From Caenorhabditis remanei (Eukaryota; Nematoda; Chromadorea; Rhabditida; Rhabditidae): DNA of 64,000 nt. This document shows positions 674 through 58,140 of the stretch, in pieces. The notes under the pieces were generated by a model, which saw nothing but the letters and a program-made list of their open reading frames with translations, searched no databases and was not told the origin of the DNA. How positions within the stretch are numbered: position 1 is the stretch's first letter; every line of letters begins with the position of its first letter. The stretch lies in assembly GCF_010183535.1 (NCBI RefSeq), contig NC_071329.1, positions 17,560,879 through 17,624,878 of the forward strand, given 5' to 3'. The translations under genes were made by a program, and so were the position numbers.

Positions 674-3093
674 ATGAACAGCTCAACAAAAACCTACAAG
701 TGTGAAATTTGTCTCAAAGCATTCCCGCGCCTTTGTGGTAAGTCATATGTTTTGTCATAGCATTTTTTTCTAATGTTTGCATTTTTTCAGATCTGAAACG
801 ACATGAACTTGTTCACACTGATGAGAGACAGAGGCCATTCGAATGCGAATTCTGTCACAAAGAGTTTTCAACCTCTTACTGTAAGTGTTATTAGCACGGC
901 ACGCGTCTCACAACTGCGCTCCACCGAAATGTCCTTGTCTCTCAATTTCGCTTCATTGGTTCCGGTAGAGCGCGGTAGTAAAAAGCATGCCGTGCTAATA
1001 ATGATTGTTCTTGCAGACTTGCACCGGCATTCAGTCATTCACACCGGAGAGATGCCATTCGAGTGTGACATTTGCTTCAAAAAATTCAAGAATTCTTCCG
1101 GTAAGTACATATTTTTGAAAACACTTTCAATTAATTAAGTTATGTCTTTTTCAGACTTGAAACGACATACAGTTATCCACACAGGAGAGACGCCTTTCGA
1201 GTGTGAGATTTGCGGTCGGGAGTTCAATGACAAGTCCAATTTACGTGCTCATGGGTCTACTCATCTAAACAGAAAAAGCATACAGTGCTCGATTTGTGGG
1301 ATATTCACTGGGTAAGAATAATGCGTAATTCGCTTAAAACTCAATATGAAAAATATACCAAAATGTAGATCTCGCCGATTTCTATGTCACTGACCTAATA
1401 CGAACCGCATGGCTTTTTAGGGCCGGGAAAAACTTGCCAAGAAGGCCGAAAATGGAAAAAAAGGCGTTCCAGTCTGGGCAGTGTGAATGACAATGTAAAT
1501 GTCAGTGGATCTTGGTCACTGTAGTTTGGGCTAATGTGCCGCCGGCCGGCCTAGAATGGCTTTTGAATAATATTTGCGTTCTTTGTCGCCTTTCCCCGGT
1601 CCGCGGCACATTATCTGGCCTGTAGTAGGTCAGTTACATAGAACTCGGCGAGATCTACATTTTGGTGTATTTTGCAGCTTTTTGAAAGTGGTCCCCCACA
1701 GTCTTCATCTTTAATATTGTTTCAGAAGGAAAACCACACTACGACGCCACATTCAACGACAACATAATCTAGACGGAGATCATTTGGAGTACGAAGTGAG
1801 ACGATCTACTAGGAATGTATCGAGAGATGGTCATGGAACAACTTCTCAGACAGCTGTTATGGGCAGTAATCAATCAGCACAAAGATATGAGTATGAATCT
1901 TCTGAGCGGTGGAATGGTCGAGTGGATACTAGTAACCGTATGAGAGAACGAATCGACAATAAATGGACATATCAGTTTTCGGAAGTGCCACGTCACAACT
2001 GCAACTCGAAGCGTCTTCCAACTATCCATACAAGAAAGAGTGTCACCTGCCACAAACAATTTGTGCGACCTTTTGGTAATTACATGACTTTCCCAGTATA
2101 ATGTTTCCATATTTTTCTTTGAGAACGGAAACGACATCACTTTGCGGAGCGGCCATTCGAATGTGGAACTTGCGGCCAGACGTTCAAACAGAAGCCCCAT
2201 CTACGTTCACATGAGCTGACTCATCAAGATAATATGTTCAGATGCTCGATATGTGGAATATTTGTCAAGTAAGTAGTTATGTTACACAGGGTCATAGAAA
2301 GTCCATATGAAGCAAGAGGTTTAACCGAAAAGAAGCAAGAAAAATGGGAAAAAGGAGATCTTTATTCGAAACATTTAACTCCCTATCGACTGTCCACGTT
2401 ATAAGCGTGCGATTTGGCTGAGCGGCGACTCAGCCTGCCAAGTCGTGTGCAAACGCGCTTCACTAGACTGCCGGTTTCGCGGGAAAATGATTTGAATTCG
2501 TATGATCCTGTGTGTAATTCACTTTTCGAGAAGGCTCCCGTTTGAAATTCAATAACCTTATAATTTAGACACAAAGCTGGTATTCGACAACACTTACGGA
2601 AACAGCATTATTTCATGGGTGAACAATTGAATGATGCAGTGAAGAATATCTACGAGTCTTCTCGGACGAGGGAGAACGGAACTCATGAAATGACTGACGT
2701 TGACGGTAGTATTCCGATACTGGACGAGAGGTACTTAGGATTGTTGAAAGTTGTTTAAAACAATATGGACGTTTTAGATTTCTGGGAACAAATCTGGAAT
2801 ATCTGGAAGTTGGTCAAGAGTGGAAACCATCGGATCAATTTGTAGATGTTAGCAACACAATGGTAGCGAATACAGAGATGATCGAGCAGGGTTCTCAGAG
2901 AAATGACGATTCTCTAAATTTTAACGATCCGGAAGAAGTTCTCAACAAAGGAAATATAGAGTTAGATCAATTTGAATGGTCGGTACCTCATTTCGAAAAA
3001 ATGGACTATTCAAAGTACCCGGAATTGGATCCAGAAGTATGGTATTCTGGGATTATAAGAGAACAACTTGAGACTAGTCGAATGGCACTTTAA
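674..3093 (+). CDS. C2H2 zinc-finger protein, seven fingers (8 exons)
   Basis: Exons read as 674-737, 791-880, 1017-1100, 1155-1311, 1726-2075, 2124-2268, 2569-2730 and 2778-3093, giving about 455 aa with all phases consistent. Seven C2H2 fingers are visible, for example CEICLKAF...LKRHELVH, CDICFKKF...LKRHTVIH and CEICGREF...LRAHGSTH, with TGE(M/T)PFEC linkers between some. Several introns cut inside fingers, usually after the second cysteine pair. The last third is acidic and finger-free. The protein is presumably a nuclear DNA-binding regulator; target unknown. Introns 2, 4 and 6 each contain a MITE-type repeat. The exon 5/6 acceptor is the unusual TTTGAG. ATG 674 was chosen because it opens the first finger exon. 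Function beyond the family is inference. Confidence 0.8.
887..1001. repeat. MITE in intron 2 of the zinc-finger gene
   Basis: Terminal inverted repeats: TTATTAGCACGGCAC at the left, GCCGTGCTAATAA at the right. The interior carries CTGCGCTCCACCGAAAT and GGTAGAGCGCG in inverted orientation. Relatives occur at 23.17-23.32 kb and, much enlarged, at 32.05-32.82 kb. Confidence 0.7.
1345..1680. repeat. foldback repeat, ACCAAAATGTAGATCT family
   Basis: Arms begin ATACCAAAATGTAGATCTCG and end with the inverse word CGAGATCTACATTTTGGT; both flank ATTCTATGTCACTGAC-like sequence. The same family lies in introns at 7.26-8.09 kb and 15.2-15.56 kb and in intergenic DNA near 51.3 kb. Confidence 0.75.
2370..2510. 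repeat. dispersed 120-bp repeat (GCGCGTTTGC family)
   Basis: Contains TTTAACTCC, GCGATTTGGCTGAGCGG, CCTGCCAAGTCGTGTGC and CCGGTTTCGCGGGAAAA in fixed order. The same unit recurs at 19.44-19.54, 47.85-47.97, 48.04-48.16, 49.92-50.01, 55.91-56.02 and 56.36-56.47 kb in both orientations. Confidence 0.75.
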
Positions 3094-24597: not shown

Positions 24598-26371
24598 ATG
24601 TTCCAGACGTACGCTTCAATGAAACAATTCAAGTGCGAAGTGTGTCATAGAACCTTTTCGGAGATGTACAGTAAGTCAAATAATAAATATTATTCATTAT
24701 GGACCTATTCTGAACGTAGCAAAAAAGCAAAACACTTTTTTTGCTTCTTTTGCTACCTTGTGAATATAGGTCCATTACAAACGATTAAAATTCTTTTAGG
24801 ATTAAAACTACACGCCGTTACTCACTCAAACGAAAGACCATTTAAATGTGAAATTTGTGGAAAACCATTCAAAACCAAAATCTGCTTGAGACAACACAGA
24901 GAAGTCCACGAAAATGTGTCTTTCGAGTGTTCGGTCTGTAAAATAAATATTCGGTGAGAATTACGAAAATTGTGTTTTTTTTCACGAATACAAACTTTTT
25001 CAGCCAAAGAAAAAATCTGTGGAAACATATGAAGAATGTCCATGATCTTGTAGGCAATCAACTGGACACAGCTATGGAAAAATCAATAAATAAGAAAGCT
25101 GCTAAAGTGGAGAATGGTGAAACAGAAAAGGAACCAAGACCACAACTCCATAACTTTTTTCCTATGTCGGCTTCGGATTCAGAAGAACCATTGTCAAAAA
25201 TCGCAAAAATTGAAAATTCAACCGATCATTCATTGAAAACTAGTTGCTATTCAAACCGTCTGGATGCGCTGAAACAGGAATTAATTAAATACGAAAATCA
25301 GTTGAAACTGATTCAAGAGACACCAGAATCAACGCCTCTGGAGGATCAGAATCGGTCTCCGTCAGCAGAAGTATCCACGTCGAAGGATGTTATGGGAAAT
25401 CATGAGCCTCAGCTGTCCGCTAGCCAAGAATTCCAAGCTGCGCACTTCCAGAATACAAATGACGTTTTCCCGAAGGAGTCGGTGCTAGTAGTTCAACAAA
25501 AAACTGTACGTTTTAGCGGCTCCGGGAGACGTTTTCCCGTTTTTCAGTGATTGCTTGACTTTTTCAGATAATTAATTGTTTGAAAAGTAAAAAGGAACAT
25601 ATTTGGCAATTTTGAGAAACAGAATAAGTTTTTTTTCGTAGAAATAGCGGGTTTTGTCATTTTTTGAACCTTTAAATTTGTTGGTTGTATGGCTGGTTCT
25701 ATGAGGAAAAAAGTTTTGTTGGTTTTCTGGACAAAATTTCTGTCACCTTTATCAAAATTACCAAAAATATTCCTTTTTATTTCTCAAACAATTAATTATC
25801 AGAAAAAGTCAAGTTATCACTGAAGAAAACGAAGAAATTGAGGCTGTGGAGCTCATGGCTTTGGAATATCCCGGAACCGTTGTAGCCTGGTCATCAATCA
25901 AATTAATATAGACATGCTTCAGAATCAATCTCTGTCAGCAATGCATCCTATTCACAAAGCAAGATCCATGTCTCAGAATGCTGTGGGAAGTCATGAGTCG
26001 CTGCTTCCACAACAGAGATTTTTTGAAGCTAGTCCAGCAACGCACTTTCAGAATTCAAACGGCACTTTGCCGATGCCGACGATGCCAGTAGTTCAACAAC
26101 AAACTGTAAGTTTTTTGTCAGGATTCCCTCTAGCCTGTCCATCAATCAAATTAATATAGACGTGCTCTCTTTTCAGCCACCAAACTTCGATGAGGACTCC
26201 CGTCAGATCTCCCATCAAATTATGCGAGTCGCTGCCAACTCAACGAAAGATCGTCAAGACTGTTTCAGACAACTGTTGTTTGCAACGGTGTTTGCATTTG
26301 AGAGCTCTCCGACCTGCACCAACGTTGAAGAATTCTTCCGGATGATGGGCGAACGATACGCGAAGAAGTGA
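24598..26371 (+). CDS. C2H2 zinc-finger cassette gene, copy 1
   Basis: Exons 24598-24670, 24800-24953, 25004-25505, 25923-26105 and 26177-26371 join in phase to 368 aa. Fingers: CEVCHRTF...LKLHAVTH, CEICGKPF...LRQHREVH, CSVCKINI...LWKHMKNVH; introns fall inside fingers 1 and 3. They are followed by GNQLDTAMEKSINKKAAKVE, a Ser/Glu-rich linker, and a 64-residue C-terminal exon (PPNFDEDSRQISHQIMRVAA ... NVEEFFRMMGERYAKK) shared with two downstream genes and, as DNA, almost unchanged. Exon 4 repeats the layout of the end of exon 3 (HFQNxN...VVQQxT), so it is an internal exon duplication. Probably a nuclear regulator; the C-terminal module is unrecognised and could be a small helical interaction domain. 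Confidence 0.75.
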
Positions 26372-27168
26372 TCGTTAATTGTCCAATTATTGATTTCCCA
26401 CCCAGCTAACCGATAAAAGTTAATAATTCATATTTTTCTCAATTTTGATGTAATTTTTCTAGATATTTATTAATTTATTTTATTTTCCATTTATTTGAGC
26501 AGTTTCATAGTTTCTTTCGCTGTACCATGAATATTAAAAACCGCTTATCGACAATATTTGTAATAATTTTTTTTCAAATTTGGTTGTTGCTTCCTTCAAT
26601 TTTCTTATCTGAATTTGCCATTTCAGTTGCAAAAATTCAATTTCTCCCCAAATTTTGTTGTCGACTAACATTTTTAGGCTAAAAATAGGATTTCGTCATT
26701 TTTAAAGCCAAAAAAACGAATTCCTTAGTCAGAAATCTGATTTTTCAAGGCAGAAAATCGATTTTGATCTCAGATTTTCAGTTTTTCTTGTAAAAACCGA
26801 CAGCATAAACTTCGAAGCATAAATTGGATATTTTTTGAATCAAATTTCTGATTTTTTGTGAAAATTCGGAATGGAAAAACGATTTTTGGGTTTAAAAATG
26901 TAAAAAAATCAGGCTATTCAATGGAAAGTTCTCTTTTTCAGGTCAAAAATCTCTATTCGGCAATTTTCAGTCTAAAAATGCAAAAAAGTGAATGTTTTGA
27001 ATTTTGTTTTGAAAAATGTCAAATTTTCGACTATCATTCAGAATTAGAAGAAATTCTGAAAAATAGTCAAAAATGGTCACATTTTCGATGAAAAACTGAA
27101 AAATTTCGAAAAATAAGAGTCTTTTTTGCAGCCGAGCCTTGATAACTATGCATAAAATTATTTTTCAG
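26372..27168. other. spacer between cassette copies
   Basis: AT-rich, no gene. Resembles the spacer upstream of copy 1, supporting tandem duplication of a unit of about 2 kb or more. Confidence 0.5.
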
Positions 27169-28170
27169 ATGTTCCAGATGAACGGTTCGGTAATAAAGTG
27201 CGAAGTGTGTCATAAAACTTTTCCGGATATTAGCAGTAAGTCAAAAATGAATATTACTATTTAAATACAAAAGATTTAAATTCTTTTAGGATTAAAACTA
27301 CACGCCATTACTCACTCAAACGAAAGGCCATTTAAATGTGAAATTTGTGGAAAATCATTCAAAACCAAAGTCAGCTTGAAACAACATATAGCAGTTCATG
27401 AAAATGTGTCTTTCGAGTGTTCGGTTTGTAATAAAACTATTCGGTAAGTTAATAAAAGTTGATGTTTTTCACGAATAAATACTTTTTTCAGCCAAAGAAA
27501 TAATCTGTATAAACACATGAAGAATGTCCATGATCTTGTAGGCAATCAACTGGACACAGCTATGGAAAAATCAATAAATAAGAAAGCTTCTGAAGTGGAA
27601 ATTATTTGGGTTGAAAATCCACAACCACAACTCCATAATAATTTATCTATCATACGGATGTTGGCTATGGATTCGGAAGGGCCATTGTCGAAAATCGCTA
27701 AAATTGAGAATTGTTCTCAACCAATCAAGCGTGTGGGTTTGAATGATTCTCAACCATTTTCAACGCTTCTGGATGCAATTAAACTGGAAGAGTACGAGAA
27801 TCAATTGGTTCAAGAGGCATCAGAATCAACGCTTCTGGAGGATCAGAATCTATTTCCGGCAGCAGAAGTATCCACGTCGAAGTCTGTTATGGGAAACCAT
27901 GAGTCACAGATTCCACAACAGGAATTCTCTGAAGCTAGTCAAAAATTCCAAGCTACGCACTTCCAAAATCCTCAGCCATCCAATTTCGATGAGGACTCTC
28001 GTCAGATCTCCCATCAAATTATGCGAGTCGCTGTCAACTCAACGAAAGATCGTCAAGACTGTTTCAGACAACTGTTGTTTGCAACGGTGTTTGCATTTGA
28101 GAGCTCTCCGACCTGCACCAACGTTGAAGAATTCTTCCGAATGATGGGCGAACGATACGCGAAGAAGTGA
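27169..28170 (+). CDS. C2H2 zinc-finger cassette gene, copy 2 (fused terminal exons)
   Basis: Exons 27169-27235, 27290-27443 and 27492-28170 give 299 aa. Fingers CEVCHKTF..., CEICGKSF...LKQHIAVH and CSVCNKTI...LYKHMKNVH match copy 1 closely. Here the linker runs straight into the C-terminal module without an intron: ...THFQN then PQPSNFDEDSRQ. The PQ is encoded by CCTCAG, which looks like the tail of the lost intron (copy 1 has TTTTCAG immediately before the same exon). ATG 27169 directly follows TTTTTCAG, a probable splice-leader acceptor. The C-terminal module differs from copy 1 at two residues only (S for P at the junction, V for A). Function as for copy 1. Confidence 0.75.
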
Positions 28171-28818
28171 TCGTTAATTGTTCAATTATTGATTTCCCAC
28201 CCAGCTAACCGATAAAAAGAAATAATTCATATTTTTCTCAATTTTGATGTAATTTTTCTAGATATTTATTAATTAATGTTATTTTCCAGTAACTTAAGAT
28301 GTACCATAATAAAATCTTTGCATATCAAGCATGTTTGTGATAGTTTCTTTTCAAATATGATGGCTTCCTTCAATTTTATTATCTAAATTGTTTGAAAAAA
28401 TCAGATTTATTACGAACCGCTTTAAACCAAAAGTTGAATTTTTTGAGAAAAGTGTTTTTAAAACTTAACATTCAAGCAAAATGGGAATATATAAAATTTT
28501 GAGCACTTTTACTCTGAATTTTGTCCAAAATCAGTTACTACCAATGCAGCCGCGCTCTATTGACAAGCATGGTACACTTTTTGCGTCTCGGTGAACTTTT
28601 GAACATTAGAATTAATTTTTCAACGTTGAATGTTCACCACGGTATGCACAGAAGTTCGAAAATTCACCGAGACGCAAATAGTGTACCATTCTTGTCCATA
28701 GAGCGCGGCTGCATAGGTTGTCCTAGACTCTACGTGAAATTGACTTTTTGTACAGTGAGAGACGCATCCCAACATTTCGCACAACCTCTTAAAACAATTA
28801 TTTTTTCAGTTGTACAAA
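28171..28818. repeat. spacer with MITE 28535-28735
   Basis: The MITE arms TACCAATGCAGCCGCGCTCT...GCGTCTCGGTGAA and inverse TTCACCGAGACGC...AGAGCGCGGCTGCA match the element at 20.8 kb. No gene. Confidence 0.65.
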
Positions 28819-29745
28819 ATGAACGCTTCAATTAAAAAAATCGAGTGCGAGGTGTGTCATAAAACCTTTCCGAATATGTACAGTAAGTCGGATGCGTATT
28901 GTTTTATACGATTAACACTATTTCAGGATTAAATGAACACGCCGTTGTTCACTCAGTGGAGATACCATTTGAGTGTGAGATTTGTGGCAATCTATTCAAA
29001 TCCAATTCCACCTTAAGACAACACATGATAGTCCATACGGGAACTGCAACTTTCGAGTGTTCGGTTTGTAAAAATTATATTCGGTTAGTTAAACGAAAAT
29101 TGAATGTTTTGCAAGTACACAAACTTTTTCAGCCGTAGAAAAAATCTGAAGTATCATATGGAGCATGTCCATGGTCTTGTAGGCAATCAACTGGAAATAG
29201 CTATCGAAAAATCAATAAATAAGAAAGCTGCTGAAGTGGAACATTGTGAAACAGAAAAGGAACCAAGACCACAGCTCCAGAACTTTTTTCTATGTCGGCT
29301 ACGTATTCGGAAGAGCCATTGGTAAAAAACGTGAAAATTGAGGATCATTTTCAACCATTTTCAACGCTTCTGGATGCAATTAAACTGGAAGAGTACGAGA
29401 ATCAATTGGTTACACCAGAATCAACGTCTCTGAAGGATCAGAATCGATCAGAAGTATCCACGTCGAAGTCTGTTATGGGAAACCATGAATTTCAGATTCC
29501 ACAACAGGAATCTTTTGATGCTAGTCAAAAATTCCAAGCAACGCCCTTCCAGAATACAAATGACATTCTCCCGAAGGATTCGGTGCTAGTTGTTCAACAA
29601 CAGACGGTAGGTACTCAGGGGTGCGCGACGTAAGGTCGCGTAAACGCGCTCCATCTCACAACGGTTGGCACGGTGCCCCTTCGAAGTTAGTCAAAAAACA
29701 GCGTATTGCCGATAGGGCCGGTGCCAGTAGTTCAATAATATAATG
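28819..29745 (+). pseudogene. C2H2 zinc-finger cassette gene, copy 3 (frameshifted, truncated)
   Basis: Exons 28819-28882, 28927-29083 and 29133-29606 preserve three fingers (CEVCHKTF, CEICGNLF...LRQHMIVH, CSVCKNYI...LKYHMEHVH) and the linker. One base is missing near 29290, where copy 1 has TTTTTTCCTATG and this copy TTTTTTCTATG, so translation ends at TAA 29325. The rest is readable in the shifted frame up to VVQQQT and a donor at 29607. A decayed relic of the duplicated exon 4 (GTGCCAGTAGTTCAATAATA) lies near 29722. No C-terminal module exon follows before the next gene. Judged a pseudogene; copies of the same GC-rich repeat follow both this donor and the one in the next gene. Confidence 0.7.
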
Positions 29746-30980
29746 TTAATCGTATAAAATCACAGCAGTGCGAGGTATAAGATCCGCAACGAACAGAATT
29801 TTTGAATTTTTTCAATATTGCGTTGCGAGCGCGTCACAGTTTATATTGAAACAGGTATGTGCCTGGGTGGCGTTGAGCGCCTCGCATTTCTTCAAAGTGT
29901 GATGAAAAAACTCGAAAACGCGAAAAGAGAGAGTGTGTAAAAATGAGAGACGATATCTGGTCATTTTCGCGCTGATTGGCTGATTGAAAGGGGCGGAGTC
30001 TCTCGGTGAACGCTGATTGGTCGCTTGAGATTAAGCATGAGCAATATTCGCATTTTTGCCGTGGCCGAAGCGGAAACTAGTCCCCCTCGCCAGACATCGT
30101 CTCTCGATTCTACACACTCTCTCTTTTCGCGTTTTCGCACACTTTTGATTTTCTCAGCGCCCAAAGCGCCTCTATAGGCACATCCCTGTATTGAAAGATA
30201 CAGTACTGGCCAGAGTTGCATGGAAGTGATAATTTCTTACACGGAACTCGGAAGTCGGAAGTCGGAATTAGATTTTTTCCCAAATATTCAAAAACTCCAA
30301 GAGAAAAGATTATAAAATTGGCGAAAATCAGTGGAAAATTAGGTTTTGGATGAAGAAAAGCCAAATTTCTCGCCTTTTAGACCATTTTTCCAAGTATTTA
30401 TGTCATATGTACTTTTCGTAAATTCCACAGTTATGAAATGACGTCTGTCGGAAGTTGGAATTCCATGCAACTCTGGTACTGGGCATAAAGAATGCGACAC
30501 TTGCAGTTTTCAGTTGAAAATGGTCAACTTTGTGAGTGTGAGACGACCTCCCTGATAGTCTCACAGTATTGATTGTTTATGGACTGTACAGATCACAAAT
30601 AGAGCTCCATTTTTGTAGTTGACTACTTTTTTGTACGGGCACAACCTAAGAAGTTATCAATCGTCAAAGTAATTTCTCGCAATTTTTGCCGTTTTTCAGT
30701 GCTAAAAGAAGAGATTTTTGAGCTGTATACATTGACTGCCTGTAACTTCTTAGGATGTGTCCGTACAAAAAAGTTGTCAACTACAAAAATGTAGCTCTAT
30801 TTGTGATCTGTATAGTCCATAAAAATCAATATTGTGAGACTATCAGGGAGGCCGTCTCACACTCACAAAGGTGACCATTTTCAACTAAAATCAGTACTGT
30901 ATTCCAGATAAACGTGAAAATCTTTGTACGGCGGAGCGCGCACTGCTGTTTTCTCTTCTTTTTACACAGTTTCTCAATAA
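29607..30980. repeat. repeat cluster between copy 3 and the chimeric receptor gene
   Basis: Three stacked elements. A foldback at about 29858-30190 has arms ending GTGCCTGGGTGGCGTTGAGC and its inverse. A CGGAAGT element at 30209-30477 is bounded by CCAGAGTTGCATGGAAGTG and the inverse TTCCATGCAACTCTGG. A foldback at about 30510-30905 has TTTTTGTAGTTGACTAC...GTACGGGCACA and inverse, with GTGTGAGACGACCTCCCTGA at its outer edges. No gene. Confidence 0.65.
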
Positions 30981-33053
30981 ATGTCTGCTTATTTACAGAA
31001 ATCTCATTCCGTCCGTCGACCCCCTTTGCTCTCGGACCATATGGATCTCAATCCTCCTATTCATCCAACTTCTAAACGAAAAGAATGTATGATATGTGGA
31101 GATATTCCTGTTGGTTACAATTATGGAGTGCTCACATGCGAAGGGTGCAAGGTAAGGAAATGTTTTATATCAATATATATCCCAAACCTTTAATTTCCAG
31201 ATATTCTTTCAACGTTACTACCATAGACATGCTGAACTGAAATGCCGAATGCATAGTACATGTTTCTCGAAAAAAATGGACAAAAACTCACGCAGATATT
31301 GTCAGAGTTGTAGAATGACCAAGTGTTTGGCACAGGGGATGAAATGTGAGAATCTCTATTTTTTATTTAAAAAAAAACTTAATATCAAACTTTTTTGTAG
31401 GCAATCAACTAATAGCTGAAAAGGACAAAGCTTCTGGAGTGAAAAATCTACTTCAGAATATTTTTTCAATCAAACGGATGTCGGCTACGAATTCGGAAGA
31501 GCTATTGGTAAACAATGTGAAAATTGAGGATCATTCTCAACCATTTTCAACGCTTTTGGATGCAATTAAACTGGAAGAGTACGAGAATCAATTGATTCAA
31601 GAGACATCAGAATCAACGCTTCTGGAGGATCAGAATCGATTTCCGGCAGCAGAAGTATCCACGTCGAAGTCTGTTATGGGAAACCGTGAATTTCAGATTC
31701 CACAACAAGAATCCTTCGAAGTTAGTCAGGAATTCCAAGTTACGCACTTCCAGAATCCAAATGACATTTTCCCGAATGAGTCGGTAGTTCAACAACAGAC
31801 GGTAGGTACACAGGGGTGCGCGACGCAAGGTCGCTTAAACGCGCTCCGTTTCACAACGGTTAGCATGGTGCTAAAAACAGACTTGGCTGAGTGCCAAGTT
31901 TAAGTTTAGCGTGTGTTATCTTGCAATGAAAAACGCGACGCACACGCAACGCGGCTGGCGCGGTAAATTCAAAACGTTTCGTTGCGGACCTTACGTCTCG
32001 CATCCCTGTGTAGGTATCAATCTAATAAATATAAGCCGAGCATTTTTGTTACAACTGCGCCCCACCGCAAACGAGAGAGTATCGACGGGAGACGCGGGGC
32101 AAATTTTTGCGCTGACATGGAGTTTCACAGTTTTTGACTCATTTTCGCTCTTTTTCAGAAGTTTTTGAAAATAATTATTATTAAAGGAGGACTGAAGTCA
32201 TATTTTTTTATTTCAGATTCTGATACTTCAGAAAATTCGGAGCAACTTTCATCATTGGAGCATATGCTAAAAATCGCTTTAAACACCCTAAATTCACGTT
32301 TTCCCGGCTCAAGAGGAGCCTATGTGGAAGAGTTTTCCCACGCGAATTTTTGCCCCCGTGTAGTCCTCTCGGACAAAACTGTTTCTTTTTATTTCTCGAT
32401 TTTTTGTTTTCTTGCTTTTTTCAACACAATTTTGTGTTTTTTTTCAATTTATACCGTAAAAAAAGAAGAAAAACACGAAATTTTGCTGAAAAAGCAAGAA
32501 AACGAGAAATCGAGAAATAAAAAGAAACAGTTTTGTCCGAGAGGACTACACGGGGGCAAAAATTCGCGTGGGAAAACTCTTCCACATAGGCTCCTTTTGA
32601 GCCGGGAAAACGTGAATTTAGGGTGTTTAAAGCGATTTTTAGCATATGCTCCAATGATGAAAGTTGCTCCGAATTTTCTGAAGTATCAGAATCTGAAATA
32701 AAAAAAAGTATGACTTCAGTCCTCCTTTAAATATGGAAAAATGCGAAAACAGGAGAAAACTATGAAAACTCTGCGTCTCTCGCCCACACTCTCTCGTTTG
32801 CGGTGGGGCGCAGTTGTAAGAGGGGTGGGCTGCTAATATAGAAGTGCTCTATTTTCAGCCACCAAACTTCGATGAGGACTCTCGTCAGATCTCCCATCAA
32901 ATAATGCGAGTCGCTGCCAACTCAACGAAAGATCGTCAAGACTGTTTCAGACAACTGTTGTTCGCAACGGTGTTTGCATTTGAGAGCTCTCCGACATGCA
33001 CCAACGTTGAAGAATTCTTCCGAATGATGGGCGATCGATACGCAAGGAAATGA
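30981..33053 (+). CDS. chimeric protein: nuclear-receptor DNA-binding domain + zinc-finger-cassette C-terminus
   Basis: Exons 30981-31151, 31201-31345, 31401-31801 and 32859-33053 join in phase to 303 aa. Residues 36-94 form an NHR C4 zinc finger: CMICGDIPVGYNYGVLTCEG, then FFQRYYHRHAELKC, with C72-x5-C78 and C91-x2-C94; the C78-C91 spacing is 12, not the usual 9. There is no ligand-binding domain. From NQLIAEK onward the protein equals the linker and 64-residue C-terminal module of the neighbouring C2H2 genes (LLDAIKLEEYENQL, EVSTSKSVMGN, then PPNFDEDSRQISHQIMRVAA). The exon 3 acceptor TTTTTTGTAG corresponds to coding CTTGTAG in those genes. Intron 3 is swollen by a foldback of about 770 bp. 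Presumably nuclear and DNA-binding; frames and splice sites are intact. Confidence 0.75.
32049..32820. repeat. large foldback in intron 3 of the chimeric receptor gene
   Basis: Arms of about 380 bp: TTACAACTGCGCCCCACCGC at the left and its inverse at the right. Both arms carry the same coding-like segment, preceded by TTTCAG, encoding SDTSENSEQLSSLEHMLK and SRGAYVEEFSH. Related to the short MITEs at 0.9 and 23.2 kb by its terminal words. The long ORFs in it (both strands) are consequences of the palindrome. Confidence 0.7.
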
Positions 33054-52539: not shown

Positions 52540-55500
52540 TTAGTCACAATCAGCATTTGTAGATTCAAGAAGTTGACTCAAACTCAGACTTTTCGGTTTC
52601 GGAATCTCGTAGACTTCACACAAAAATAGTGGAATTTTCATGAATTTCGAGTTGACTTGTAAGAAGGAAATCGTGTTGTCGCGGTGGAGTTTATCTGGAA
52701 GAATTAATTATAATTACATAATTGCTCATAAATTCAAATAACCCCGGAATTCCGGAATGACGAAAAAACCCGGAATTCCGGATTGTCAAAAAACCCGGAA
52801 TTCCGGAATGTCAAAAAACCCGGAATTCCAGAATTTTGGAATCCGGAATTCCGGAATGTCAAAAAACCCAGAATTCCGGAATGTCAAAAAAACCCGGAAT
52901 TCCGGAATGTCAAAAAACCCGGAATTCCGGAATGTCAAAAACTCGGAGTTCCGGAATGCCAAAACCCGGAATTCCGGAATGTCAAAAAACCCGGAATTCC
53001 GGAATTTCAAAAAACCCGGAATTCCAGAATTTTGGAATCCGGAATTCCGGAATGTCAAAAAACCCAGAATTCCGGAATGTCAAAAAAACCCGGAATTCCG
53101 GAATGTCAAAAACCCGGAATTCCGGAATATCGGAATCCGGAATTCCGGAATTTTGGAATCCGGAATCCGGAATGTCAATAAACCCGGAATTCCGGAATGT
53201 CAAAAAACCCGGAATTCCGGAATTCTGGATTCCAGAAAAAAGGAAACTCAAAAACCCGGAATTCCGGAATGTCAAAAACTCGGAATTCCGGAATGTTAAA
53301 AAAACCCGGAATTCCGGAATGTCAAAAAACCCGGATTTCCGGAATGTCAAAAAACACGGAATTCCGGAATTTTGGAATCCGGAATCTGGGTTCCGGACAA
53401 CTCTGATTGGTAGCCCTGGCTTCATCGTGAGTATGAACTTACTAAGATCTTCTAACTTAAAAGTCATCTCATCGAGCTCAGAAATAGTGTCATGTCCATT
53501 TTCGTATTTTGAAAACATCCGATTGAGAAATGTTTTGTAGCAGTGATAAACCAACTCCAATGTTTTGTGGCTTTTGAATTTCTCCTTATTTCTTGTTCTT
53601 TCCGGAGCATCCGCCGTGAACGGAAGAAAAAAGACGAGTGCCGTGAAAAGAGATAGCTCATGATGGCTTAAATCCATTGATTCGAGTTTTGAAGCAATTG
53701 AAATGATCTCATTGATGAGAAGATCTCCATAGACTATTTTTAATGTTTCATAGGGAATCTTGATCTTGGAATTGAGTTTCGATGGAAGCATGAATCCATC
53801 AGAACTAAATTTGGTGATGTTTCTGAGTACAAACATCAGAAAACTGCTCCTTTTGAATAGAATGACCTTGTCATTTATTTCAAAAGTTTTGATAAATGGC
53901 AGGTGATTCACAAAGAGTCCAGTCTGATGGTTCTCGAAATCTATTATTGGAGCATAGACTTGCCACGCATTGATTCGATTAATCAATGGGTCGTCGAAGC
54001 GGGTCTGAAAAAATAAAAAATTGTTGAAAATTTCCTTCAAAAGAAAGTTTTTAGAGAAATGACTTTCAAACGATCTATAAATTAGTTCATAGGTATTTTC
54101 GACTACGGGGAGTGTAAAAATCCAAAAAAATCCGCAAAAATCGAGTAAAACCTAAGGCAGGCTCGTGTACTCCTCGTGGACAAGTTGGGGGTGAAATTTT
54201 CGAAATTTTGTCATGTTTAGCTATTTTTTTGGAATTTTTCGTGATTTTTTGATATAACGATGTTGCAAACCGTTTAAATTGACGTTTTCTATGGAAAAAT
54301 CCGCAAAAATCAGTGAAAACCTAAGGAAGGCTCGTGTACTCCTCGTGGAAAACTTTTCATATGGCCCAGATTTTTCACATGGAATTCCAAACAGGCCGCA
54401 TATACGTCCCGAAGCGTCTCTATTGTCTGTCTAGACATCTGTGTATCCAGATGTCTAATTTGCACAAATTTTATATGACTAGAAAGCTGAGGTGCTGAAT
54501 CTACAACAGTTTTAAGGTTGCAGGTGGTGTACTCCTCGTGGACAATTTCTGCGGCAGCCTTTCATCGTCTATATCTCATTTCACACGGGTCTAAACATAA
54601 AATTAGTTGGGTTTTTAAAATCAGCGTTTCTAAAAGTACCTATGCAGCAATTTGTAGAAAATTTCAGCTCGAGGGTTTCGTGTACTCCTCGTGGGCAAGT
54701 TGGGGGTCAAATTTTTGAAATTTTTCGCCATGTTTAGCTTTTTTTTTGGAATTTTTTGATATAACGATGTTGTAAACCGTTTCAATTACCAATTTTCTAT
54801 GTAAAAATCCAAAAAACCAAAAAAAAATGGTCTAAAACCAAAGGAAGGCTCGTGTACTCCTCGTGGACAAGTTGGAGGTGAAAGTTTTTGAAATTTTTCA
54901 TAATTGTTTAATATAACAACATTGTATACCGTTTAGATTGGCAGTTTTCTATGTAACATCAAAAAAAATCGACTAAAATCAACTAAAATCGAAGAAAGGC
55001 TGGTGTACTCCTCGTGGACAAGTTGGAAGTGAAACCTTTCGAAATTTGATTATTTTTCAGTTATTTTTCAGATCTTTTTGTGATTTTCACTCATTAAAAC
55101 GTTGTACACCAAAAAATCCAAAAAATTGACTAAAATCGACTAAAACCTAGGGTAGGCTCGTGTACTCCTCGTGGACAAGTTTGGGGTGAAATTTTTCAAA
55201 ATTTTGTCATTTTTAACCGTTTTTCGGTATTTTAAATTGCTTGAAAGCAGCGTCTCCAAGACTCATCAAAAACTAATTTTAAAAAACTAACCAATTCGAA
55301 ATTGCTTTTTTCTACGCTTTCAATATCTGTATCCTTGTAAGTACAACTTTGTCCAAAACTTCGACCCACTTTATTGACTATCTGTAATAGAAAACATGTG
55401 GATTACGGTAGACTATTTTAAGATACCTCTGTAAACTCTGATTTCGAAAAAACTTTATGTTTCAGTCCCATTCCTGCTTCCAGACACTTTTTCATTCGAC

Positions 55501-58140
55501 AACTTTTACATGTGTTTCGTGAAATTATGTTGATATCACAGTTGCCATCCACTCGACATTCAAGTTTTATATCTTTCTCATGATGAGTACGGAAGAATCC
55601 CTGGAATTGCATTTTTTAATTAGTTTAATTGGTTAGATACACATACCTTGCATCCTTCACATGCTACTATATCAAAAAAGTGTTCAAACGAAATGTCTCC
55701 ACAGACTCTACAGCAATCATGGGCGCGTTGAATCTGCAAAAAAAATTTAAAAAAAAATTAATTATAAAAATAAGTGAGTTTTCCAACTAACCTTTTTGAT
55801 AACTAGTTTTCTTCCTTTACCAAATCCACCGTTTGCAGGTCTACGCAAGTTATCTGAAAAGACGGTAAGAGTTATGAAAACTATACCAACACACAGGGTC
55901 ATAATTAGTCCGAAACCGGAAGTCTAGTGAAGCGCGTTTGCACACCACTTGGTAGGTTGAGTCGCCGCTCAGCAAAATCGCGCGCTTATAACGTGAACGG
56001 ACGATACGGAGTTAAATGTTCAGCCAGAAAACCACAATTTTCATTCAAAAAACCACGATTTTCACTCAAAAAATCACGATTTTCATTCAAAAAATAACGA
56101 TTTTCATTCAAAAACCACGAATTTTAGCCAAAAAACCACGATTTTCATTTAAAAGTCACGATTTTCATTCAGAAAACCACGATTTTCAGCCGAAAAACCA
56201 CGATTTTCACTCAAAAAACTACGATTTTCATTCGAAAAACTACGATTTTCAGTCAAAAAAATATGATTTTCATTCAAAAAATCTCGATTTTTATTTTAAA
56301 AATCGCGATTTTCCTTCAAAAAACCACGATTTTCATTCAAAAAACCACGATTTTCATAGTTTTCCCGCGAAACCGGGTGTCTAGTGAAGCGCGTTTGCAC
56401 ACCTCTTGACAGGTTGAGTCGCCGCTCAGCCAAATTGCGTGCTTCTAACGGGAACGAACGATACGGAGTTAAATTTTTTTAATGAATCTCACTTTTTTGG
56501 TCAAACTTCGTACAAAAAATATAGAATTTATTCAACATAAAAAAATTTGGATCTGAATTTCGCGGTAACTTTACGTTCAATGACCCTGTGCGAACATACA
56601 AACTCACAGTCCATTCCCAATTTCAGACATTTCTCCATTCTGCATTTCCCACATTTGTTGCGTGAGTATTTATCGACCACACACTTGTTACTCTTCCGAC
56701 ATTTCAATTCCTCTTTTTTGTCCCGATTAGTACGGAAGAACGACTGAAAATTTAATAATTAGGTTCTTGTTTCTCATAAGGGAAGTCTTTGGCTTGCAAA
56801 CAACCTATAAATTTGATCGTAGGTACTTTTGACTATGGGGACTCCATTTCTGCCATCAAAACCGGTTGAATATATCTGCGAGCCAAGTTATGAGCTCTCA
56901 AAGTTTTCAAATGATCAAACTTTTTCACAAATCACAATTTCACACTTTTTCACACAATTTTTCAAATTGGCAAATAGTATTCGCAAAGATTTCCTCATTA
57001 TTTTAGCATACGAGCAGCGGTAAACTGCTGGGGAAAACAAATGGAACCGCTCTGTGGCGTATATGCGGCCGATGTGGAATTTTATGTAAAAAAGTTAACC
57101 ATATGAAAAGTTTGTCCACGAGGAGTACACGAGCCTTCCTTAGGTTTTAGTCGATTTTTGCGGATTTTTTGGCATTTTTATAGAAAACGTCAATTTAAAC
57201 GTTTTACAACGTTGTTGTATTAAAAAATTTTGAAAAAATTCGAAAACTTTCAACCCTCTCCCTCCCCCCCCCCCCCCCCCCCCCCAACTTGTCCACGAGG
57301 AGTATACGAGCCTTTCCTAGATTTTAGTCGATTTTTGAGGATTTTTACATAGAAATATTGTAATTGAAACGGTTTACAATGTTTTAATGACTGAGAATCA
57401 CAAAAAGATTTGAAAAATAACTGAAAAATGACCGAATTTCGAAAATTTTCAACCCAACTTGTCCACGAGGAGTACACGAGCCTTTTCTAGGTTTTCGTCG
57501 ATTTTAGTTGATTTTTTCAAAGAAAACGTCGAATTAAACGGCTTACAACGTCGTTATATTAAAAAATTATGAAACATTTTGAAAAAATTCCAAAAAATAG
57601 CTAAACAAGACAAAATTTTGAAAACTTTGACCCCAACTTGTCCACGAGGAGTACACGAGCCTTCCTTAGGTTTTAGTCGGTTTTAGTCGATTTTTTTTGG
57701 ATTTTTTGGATTTTATATAGTTTAATGATTGAAAATCACAAAACGATCTAGAAAATAACTACAATTTATAGCTCATAACTCGGCTCACTGAGACAATTAG
57801 CCTGGACTCCCCGTAGTAGAGTATATATGACCAATTTTATAGATCGTTTGAAAGCCATGACTATCCTTGTCAGAATTTTCGAAAAATGAAATAAAATACT
57901 CACCCTACAACCTTCACACGCTAGAACTCCATAGTGAACTCCGCGGGGTTTATCTCCACAAACTTTGCAGGCGAGTGTGGAGATTTGGTTATTTTCCGCC
58001 AATATACTTGTTGATTGCAGACGGCTCGGCTCATAGAATATAGGGTCCCGATTGATATTCTCTTGATCAATGACATCTGATTCGGCAGTGGAGGTAGTGG
58101 ATGAATCGGACATTATTGAGTGTGTAGACAGGGAAGTCAT
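52540..58140 (-). CDS. nuclear hormone receptor with two DNA-binding domains
   Basis: Minus-strand exons 57904-58140, 56608-56743, 55792-55853, 55647-55733, 55427-55600, 55292-55381, 53443-54004 and 52540-52694 join in consistent phase to 500 aa. DBD1: [44 protein letters not shown] (residues 58-120). DBD2: [44 protein letters not shown] (about 154-215). Both keep all eight cysteines with C-x2-C-x13-C-x2-C and C-x5-C-x9-C-x2-C spacing. A linker ([11 protein letters not shown]) separates them. The last two exons are a helical ligand-binding domain of the nematode HNF4-derived type ending [11 protein letters not shown]. It presumably acts as a ligand-regulated transcription factor. Alternative: two adjacent genes, but DBD1 has no other ligand-binding domain and DBD2 no other start. 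Confidence 0.65.
52740..53405. repeat. 25-bp satellite with palindromic GGAATTCC core
   Basis: More than 20 copies of CCGGAATTCCGGAATGTCAA-type units with poly-A spacers, in the last intron of the receptor gene. The array lacks stops in several frames, so long spurious ORFs appear on both strands. Edge word TTCCGGACAACTCTG resembles the CGGAAGT family termini. Confidence 0.85.
54150..55190 (+). repeat. forward array of TACTCCTCGTGGACAAG
   Basis: Seven copies of CTCGTGTACTCCTCGTGGAC with slight variants, near 54162, 54331, 54523, 54678, 54849, 54994 and 55156, spaced 145-190 bp, in intron 6 of the receptor gene. Confidence 0.8.
55905..56470. repeat. two direct 120-bp repeats flanking a 20-bp array
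   Basis: Copies of AGTGAAGCGCGTTTGCACAC...GGTTGAGTCGCCGCTCAGC...CGATACGGAGTTAAA at 55915-56012 and 56370-56473 bracket about 16 copies of AAAACCACGATTTTCATTCA. Lies in intron 2 of the receptor gene. Confidence 0.75.
57100..57680 (-). repeat. reverse array of TACTCCTCGTGGACAAG, with poly-C tract
   Basis: Four inverted copies (CTTGTCCACGAGGAGTACAC) near 57113, 57288, 57459 and 57640, in intron 1 of the receptor gene. A run of about 20 C residues precedes the second copy near 57266. Confidence 0.8.

What the first reader, a model, noticed from the sequence alone, without database searches (positions are those of the whole stretch)
24598..33053. Tandem gene family in which C2H2 fingers were swapped for a nuclear-receptor DNA-binding domain
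Four adjacent plus-strand genes share one linker and a 64-residue C-terminal module. Three start with C2H2 fingers. The last starts with a complete NHR C4 finger and has no ligand-binding domain, so two unrelated DNA-binding folds are attached to the same effector. The shared module has no name I know. Its DNA is almost identical between copies while the linkers differ more, which suggests gene conversion or strong constraint. This is the best candidate here for a new, lineage-specific regulator system.
Basis: partly seen in the sequence, partly recalled or inferred. Interest (0 to 1): 0.88.

Follow-up and report, generated by a model that had tools for sequence, protein, structure and literature searches.

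The report
Nuclear-receptor finger fused to LIN-8 tail
In a free-living worm, a cluster of zinc-finger genes that share the tail of the known worm chromatin protein LIN-8 also carries a nuclear-receptor DNA-binding segment joined to the same tail, an unusual but possibly decaying twist on a known gene family.

Summary
The window is Caenorhabditis remanei PX506 chromosome II. The shared 64-residue module is the C-terminal end of the LIN-8 domain (Pfam PF03353), usually on its own 3' exon. C2H2-LIN-8 (LIDO) proteins of C. remanei are published; I found no description of a nuclear-receptor (C4) version in the papers searched. Of 19 module places in this genome, 17 have C2H2 fingers upstream, one has neither, and one, this locus, has a C4 domain. 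"Four genes" is probably wrong: "gene 3" has no module exon. The C4 exons plus a second linker exon form a 699-nt frame-keeping cassette between gene 3's linker exon and the module exon, and the cassette's last intron uses an acceptor made from sequence that is coding in three paralogs. Two public gene models, one per assembly, join gene 3's linker to the C4 exons, but each assembly shows one frame break. Module identity reflects purifying selection plus exon-level gene conversion. Best reading: a recently shuffled, partly decaying composite LIDO gene whose tail recruits a LIN-8-type partner. No transcript or structure evidence was available.

The parts
24598..26371 (+). gene 1: C2H2 fingers (24598-24670, 24800-24953, start of 25004-25505), linker A exon, optional second linker-type exon (25923-26105 or shorter), LIN-8-C module exon 26177-26371
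   Evidence: spliced translation; Pfam; repeats
27169..28170 (+). gene 2: C2H2 fingers + linker + module; exons 27169-27235, 27290-27443, 27492-28170 (linker and module in one exon)
   Evidence: database match P0001 (CRE_14557)
28819..29606 (+). gene 3 / 5' part of the composite gene: three C2H2 fingers and linker exon 29133-29606; frame broken after the fingers in this assembly; no module exon of its own
   Evidence: joint reading of fingers, linker and part of the C4 domain in P0014
31346..31400 (+). intron joining the C4 exon to the second linker; donor placed as in the NHR gene of L022; acceptor TGTAG|GCAATCAACT formed from sequence that is coding in genes 1-3
   Evidence: 15-mer at 25049, 27537, 29178, 31396; L022 donor
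31401..31801 (+). second linker exon, paralog of the gene 3 and gene 2 linkers
32859..33053 (+). LIN-8-C module exon of the C4 gene
29843..30890 (.). repeats in the intron between gene 3's linker exon and the C4 exons: two with many listed copies (29843-30193 and 30476-30890) and a stretch between them (30210-30453) with only a few listed matches
   Evidence: 40 of 3,200 candidates scored
32181..32730 (.). 550-bp palindromic repeat (MITE-like) with many listed copies at 90-95% identity, in the last intron
   Evidence: (40 of 1,456 candidates scored)

Best explanation
The locus belongs to the LIDO (LIN-8 domain) family in its C. remanei C2H2-bearing branch. The shared module is the last ~57 positions of the LIN-8 domain; in most copies read it is on its own 3' exon, which is exchanged between paralogs. 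At gene 3, exons for a nuclear-receptor C4 domain came to lie upstream of a duplicated linker exon. Splicing was achieved with the receptor's own post-domain donor and an acceptor made from formerly coding linker sequence. The result is a frame-keeping cassette between the C2H2-linker exon and the module exon, that is, one composite gene (C2H2 - linker - C4 - linker - LIN-8-C), of which PX506 now has only the part after the fingers in one open reading. Inferred function: a DNA-bound adaptor. The finger part (C2H2 or C4) chooses the site, and the LIN-8 tail recruits a partner shared by the family, plausibly a repressive chromatin complex as for LIN-8. Shown: module identity, exon anatomy, frame, splice-compatible signals, selection pattern. 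Inferred: transcription, DNA binding, partner recruitment.
For: Module = Lin-8: Pfam 30-32 bits on the window proteins (just under the 34.1 cut-off), 39-40 bits on two sister modules and 41-85 bits on four canonical C-termini of the same genome. A profile of 8 canonical LIN-8 C-termini finds the three window modules (E 4e-10 to 4e-9 among 3,784 ORFs), and profile-profile comparison gives 98.5% probability, E 4e-15. Composite gene: no module exon in gene 3. The cassette is 699 nt, a multiple of 3, and joins in phase 0 on both sides. The 1,392-bp intron before the C4 exons is 766 bp many-copy repeats plus 244 bp of a rarer repeat, leaving 382 bp. P0002 joins gene 3's linker to the C4 exons, linker 2 and module; P0014 (CRE_14561, the other assembly) joins C2H2 fingers and linker to the C4 exons. 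Acceptor from coding sequence. Selection: module dN/dS 0.07-0.12 against 0.4-1.0 in linkers and 0.6-0.8 in fingers.
Against: No transcript was seen; both public models are predictions whose evidence I did not see, and they leave gene 3's linker at different donors (P0014 after QQESFE, P0002 after QQQT). In PX506 the fingers run into a stop soon after a frame change. In P0014 the C4 frame is lost early in finger 2 and the model has no module. So no single assembly shows the whole composite open, and the gene may be decaying. The C4 domain has unusual cysteine spacing. In the genome-wide Lin-8 scan gene 1 passes the cut-off (34.7) but genes 2 and 4 do not (33.3 and 28.5). No structure could be predicted.
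Confidence: 0.55

Rival explanations
1. Two genes: gene 3 is a truncated C2H2 pseudogene, and gene 4 is a separate NHR-LIN-8 gene with its own promoter and start at ATG 30981, formed when C4 exons replaced the fingers of a fourth tandem copy.
For: ATG 30981 is in frame with the C4 domain. Gene 3 is frame-broken in PX506. Linker exon plus about the first 70 bp of its intron are duplicated at about 2,190-2,200 bp spacing (D3, D6, D13), as a tandem gene copy would leave.
Against: Only 108 bp lie between the last repeat and the C4 exon. Two public models in two assemblies join gene 3's linker to the C4 exon at the same acceptor. No module was found after gene 3's linker exon.
Confidence: 0.28
2. 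Dead end: the whole C4 segment is a pseudogenised fragment caught in a repeat-rich intron; the real gene 3 product is C2H2-linker spliced straight to the module, or nothing. (Overlaps with the other readings as to anatomy.)
For: Repeats on both sides; one frame change in each of two assemblies.
Against: In PX506 the C4 reading, linker 2 and module are all open over 699 nt plus the module exon with usable splice sites. Between the two models the C4 core (P0002 residues 134-181) differs at 2 of 48 residues, the part before it (106-133) at 4 of 28, and gene 3's linker (1-75) at 9 of 75 plus a 3-residue gap (read); numbers too small for a test.
Confidence: 0.25
3. Module identity is due only to selection, without exchange between copies.
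For: g2 and g4 have about equal synonymous divergence in linker and module (0.18 and 0.175), so for this pair constraint suffices.
Against: g1-g2: linker dS 0.47 against module dS 0.083. Modules of two subfamilies with unalignable linkers and introns differ by dS as low as 0.05 (g4 against II:17530667), though each module has only about 38 synonymous sites. The module at II:17354735 changes type inside the exon.
Confidence: 0.08

Closest known systems
LIDO / LIN-8 domain family (Pfam PF03353; C. elegans lin-8, lido-1 and others; Rahe and Hobert 2019, PMC6643894)
   Same: Same C-terminal region; clustered matches on C2 and C6 of this genome (that C6 is the X is my assumption), as lido clusters lie on II and X in C. 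elegans; C. remanei members with C2H2 fingers are reported (21 of 88)
   Different: Only profile positions ~251-310 of 311 are convincingly kept here; a C4 nuclear-receptor domain is not among the added domains named there (C2H2, MADF, SET)
Nuclear hormone receptors (zf-C4, PF00105)
   Same: C4 DNA-binding domain over nearly the whole profile; introns after the first finger and after the domain sit as in the receptor of L022 and, read from translations, in neighbouring chromosome II receptors
   Different: No ligand-binding domain match; the 11 other DNA-binding domains compared are 37-52% identical; C-terminus is LIN-8
KRAB- or ZAD-type C2H2 gene clusters (recalled analogy)
   Same: Lineage-specific tandem expansion, conserved effector, fast-changing fingers
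   Different: Unrelated effector, two or three fingers, and here a second fold of DNA-binding domain; analogy not tested

Membership tests
LIDO / LIN-8 domain (PF03353) | Sequence match to the Lin-8 profile | tested here: met
   30-32 bits on window proteins, under the 34.1 cut-off; genome scan 34.7, 33.3 and 28.5 for genes 1, 2 and 4; supported by canonical-only profile and hhalign
LIDO / LIN-8 domain (PF03353) | Full-length LIN-8 domain, most of the protein | tested here: not met
   convincing match is to the last ~57 positions only; weak extension into the linker starting at profile position 152-218
LIDO / LIN-8 domain (PF03353) | Nuclear location and binding to LIN-35/Rb (reported for LIN-8) | not testable with these tools
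   reported for LIN-8 in PMC6643894 section 25, citing Davison 2005 (not held)
Nuclear hormone receptor | C4 DNA-binding domain with eight cysteines | tested here: met
   67 bits, profile 2-69/70; spacing unusual in finger 2
Nuclear hormone receptor | Ligand-binding domain | tested here: not met
   no PF00104 match in g4 at E up to 10 or in P0002 at E up to 0.1
C2H2-LIDO branch of C. remanei | C2H2 fingers + linker + LIN-8 C-terminus | tested here: met
   genes 1 and 2; 17 of 19 module places have fingers upstream on the same strand

The most novel reading that the evidence does not exclude
C. remanei has evolved a site-selection system in which a frozen LIN-8 tail exon, homogenised by gene conversion, is offered to changing DNA-binding exons. 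The window holds a transcription regulator with two unrelated DNA-binding folds (C2H2 and nuclear-receptor C4) in one protein feeding the same LIN-8 effector, formed by turning coding sequence into a splice acceptor.
Probability: 0.17. Interest if true: 0.75.

Novelty: new variant of a known kind. Interest (0 to 1): 0.45.

Why it matters
It catches domain shuffling nearly in the act: receptor exons with their own introns, a frame-keeping cassette, and an acceptor whose coding counterparts survive in three neighbours. If expressed, it is the first C4-LIN-8 protein that I could find, and it gives a way to ask what the LIN-8 tail does when brought to DNA by different folds. [quoted passage not shown]

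Tried and rejected
Module as an unknown domain: rejected. Module as a common receptor part: no PF00104 match, and, read by eye, no zf-C4 place listed lies within 5 kb of the 59 PF03353 matches except this locus and II:17.350 Mb. The latter is about 4.5 kb from a LIN-8 module with C2H2 fingers between. Those zf-C4 lists are lower bounds (150 of 188 and 150 of 531 candidates scored, and the second is cut short).

Parent of the C4 domain: not found. DNA search of 30880-31410 returned only itself. The 11 domains compared are 37-52% identical. That comparison is partial: of seven fetched loci tried by pattern, L010 (the best other hit), L015 and L016 gave no clean domain and were left out, and L014, L017 and L019 were not tried. 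II:17.348 Mb alone shares the longer cysteine spacing; the 'win57' row joins two exons by hand about 1 kb apart and may not be one gene.

A solved relative of the module: none found (one chance hit at E 1.7; the 60 shown of 353 were zinc-finger proteins, because its alignment holds whole proteins). Relatives outside C. remanei: the two module searches returned only C. remanei, and the C4 search returned two C. remanei proteins and one ordinary receptor (P0015). The search needs shared 5-residue words, so this is not evidence of absence. tRNA scan: none. The bacterial promoter scan has no bearing on a worm and is not used.

Literature. One search ('nuclear receptor', C2H2, LIN-8, remanei) returned one paper, PMC6643894, whose lido section (read) does not mention the fusion and whose main text has no 'zf-C4' or 'nuclear receptor domain'. 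Only open-licence papers are held. PMC11778786 (passages) gives different lido counts (3 in C. remanei, 58 in C. japonica, as I read its spellings) from PMC6643894; 59 exon-level matches here fit the larger C. remanei number.

Full report
Where it is. The whole genome holding the window is 130,466,896 bases in 186 contigs and the window is C2:17560879-17624878. C2 has the same length (19,935,723) as the contig that carries the chromosome II GCK72_ proteins of Caenorhabditis remanei, and C1 has the length printed for chromosome I of C. remanei (PX506 x PX553 map) in PMC10461856 (17,247,545; passages). I therefore read it as PX506 chromosome II.

What is there. Spliced by eye, gene 1 (24598-26371) and gene 2 (27169-28170) each give C2H2 fingers, a polar linker and the 64-residue module in one open reading. 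Gene 3 (28819-29606) gives three fingers, then its frame changes and stops; its linker is open in another frame up to the same exon end, and no module exon follows. The C4 reading (exons 30999 or 30981-31151, 31201-31345, 31401-31801, 32859-33053) is open throughout.

What the module is. Pfam names it Lin-8 (PF03353) at 30-32 bits, under the curated 34.1. In the genome-wide scan gene 1 reaches 34.7, gene 2 33.3 and gene 4 28.5. I tested this in three ways. Several sister modules in the same genome pass the cut-off. A profile built only from eight canonical LIN-8 C-termini finds the three window modules at E 4e-10 to 4e-9 among 3,784 ORFs of the window and 11 fetched stretches. Profile-profile comparison of canonical and window-type modules gives 98.5%, E 4e-15 over 55 columns (two of the eight canonical rows contain a stop, which was dropped from the letters, and two long rows were cut to 66 residues). 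Homology is to the last ~57 of 311 positions. C. remanei LIDO proteins with C2H2 fingers are published: 88 lido genes, 21 with C2H2; MADF and SET additions in other species (PMC6643894, section 25 read). The section does not mention nuclear-receptor domains on LIDO proteins, and 'zf-C4' and 'nuclear receptor domain' occur nowhere in the main text.

How special the C4 copy is. The module search found 19 places. In 17 of 19, C2H2 fingers lie upstream on the same strand, up to about 2.3 kb away; II:17532853 has none of its own; the window's last copy has the C4 domain. That finger and module belong to one gene is not shown for each: the GenBank model P0004 holds two modules and no fingers although fingers lie upstream of one of them. 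GenBank already holds the C4 reading as P0002, GCK72_007700, with both domains.

One gene or two. P0002 starts in gene 3's linker, after its frame change, and joins it to the C4 exon at 30999 (coordinates). P0014 (CRE_14561, an older assembly; strain PB4641 by recall) runs from gene 3's fingers through the linker into the same C4 exon start, though from an earlier donor (after QQESFE, not QQQT), then leaves the C4 frame after CFSKK in a way that fits one extra base in a run of A; I saw only protein. Each assembly thus shows one break, in a different half. The C4-linker cassette is 699 nt and joins in phase 0 on both sides. The intron before it is 1,392 bp: 766 bp are two repeats with many listed copies, 244 bp a stretch with only a few listed matches, and 382 bp are neither. 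I favour a single composite gene, at roughly two to one over two genes.

How the join was made. The receptor exons keep two introns seen in the receptor of L022: after CEGCK and after GMxT|GT; translations of neighbouring chromosome II receptors fit the same positions. The second intron splices to TGTAG|GCAATCAACT at 31401. That 15-mer occurs four times in the window; in genes 1-3 it encodes VGNQL right after the last finger. So what is coding in the paralogs serves as an acceptor here, and phase is kept. The direction of change is inferred from the three-to-one count. The parent receptor was not found.

Why modules look alike. For genes 1, 2 and 4, module dN is 0.007-0.021 and dS 0.083-0.208; linker dN is 0.08-0.21 and dS 0.13-0.47 for genes 1-4; finger dN is 0.10-0.29 and dS 0.17-0.38 for genes 1-3. 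Strong purifying selection on the module explains g2-g4. Conversion is needed as well. g1-g2 modules are far closer than their linkers. Eight close modules from subfamilies with unalignable linkers have dS 0.03-0.24, on about 38 synonymous sites, and homology between the two main subfamilies begins within the first bases of the exon (the ninth, III:5443564, is more distant, dS 0.34-0.53). The module at II:17354735 is one type at its start and the other at its end. Gene 1 carries an extra linker-like stretch before its module (25923-26105).

Finger change. In four finger sets from the two subfamilies, mean pairwise difference is higher at the four usual base-contact positions (recalled) than at other non-structural positions (0.70 against 0.50, 0.90 against 0.45, 0.76 against 0.56, 0.64 against 0.35, on 6, 5, 12 and 11 distinct fingers). 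This is common for C2H2 families and was not tested for significance. Third fingers and P0006 were not in the sets, and P0016's only finger, counted as a first finger, may be a second.

Another captured N-terminus. P0005 (CRE_14558) has a related linker and the module behind a different N-terminus, whose only match in PX506 is on C1 at 88% identity. If that model is right, the cluster in the other assembly has picked up a third kind of front end; a mis-assembly or mis-joined model could also explain it.

Mechanism. From LIN-8's reported nuclear location and LIN-35/Rb contact (PMC6643894, citing work that I could not read) I infer that the tail recruits a chromatin partner and that fingers or the C4 domain choose the site. 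Which part of LIN-8 binds LIN-35 I do not know. Nothing here shows transcription, DNA binding or repression. The finding is a new variant of a known family, with a real chance that it is dying.

Noticed in passing
window 25923-26105: Linker-like extra stretch inside gene 1, close to the linker of P0005 in the other assembly; gene 1 may be a recombinant of two paralogs.
   Followed up: partly
L024:2736-2918 (II:17354735): Chimeric LIN-8-C module: starts as the IAHQLSRVATARPE type and ends as the RMMGERHANK type with that type's 3' flank.
   Followed up: yes
L046 (C1:13876406-13876783) and P0005: N-terminus of CRE_14558, joined there to a LIN-8-C module, matches a C1 reading in PX506 at 88%; possible capture of a third front end in the other assembly. 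No convincing Pfam match.
   Followed up: partly
window 55421-58140, minus strand: Several nuclear-receptor DNA-binding exons, split where the C4 cassette is split as far as translations show.
   Followed up: partly
window 742-2269, plus strand: Further C2H2 finger readings upstream in the window; no module match lies near them, otherwise not examined.
   Followed up: no
window 32203-32706: 218-nt inverted arms, 99% complementary, inside a 550-bp repeat with many listed copies at 90-95% identity, in the last intron of the C4 gene.
   Followed up: partly
PMC11778786 against PMC6643894: Published lido gene counts for C. remanei and C. japonica disagree strongly (3 and 58 against 88 and 5).
   Followed up: partly
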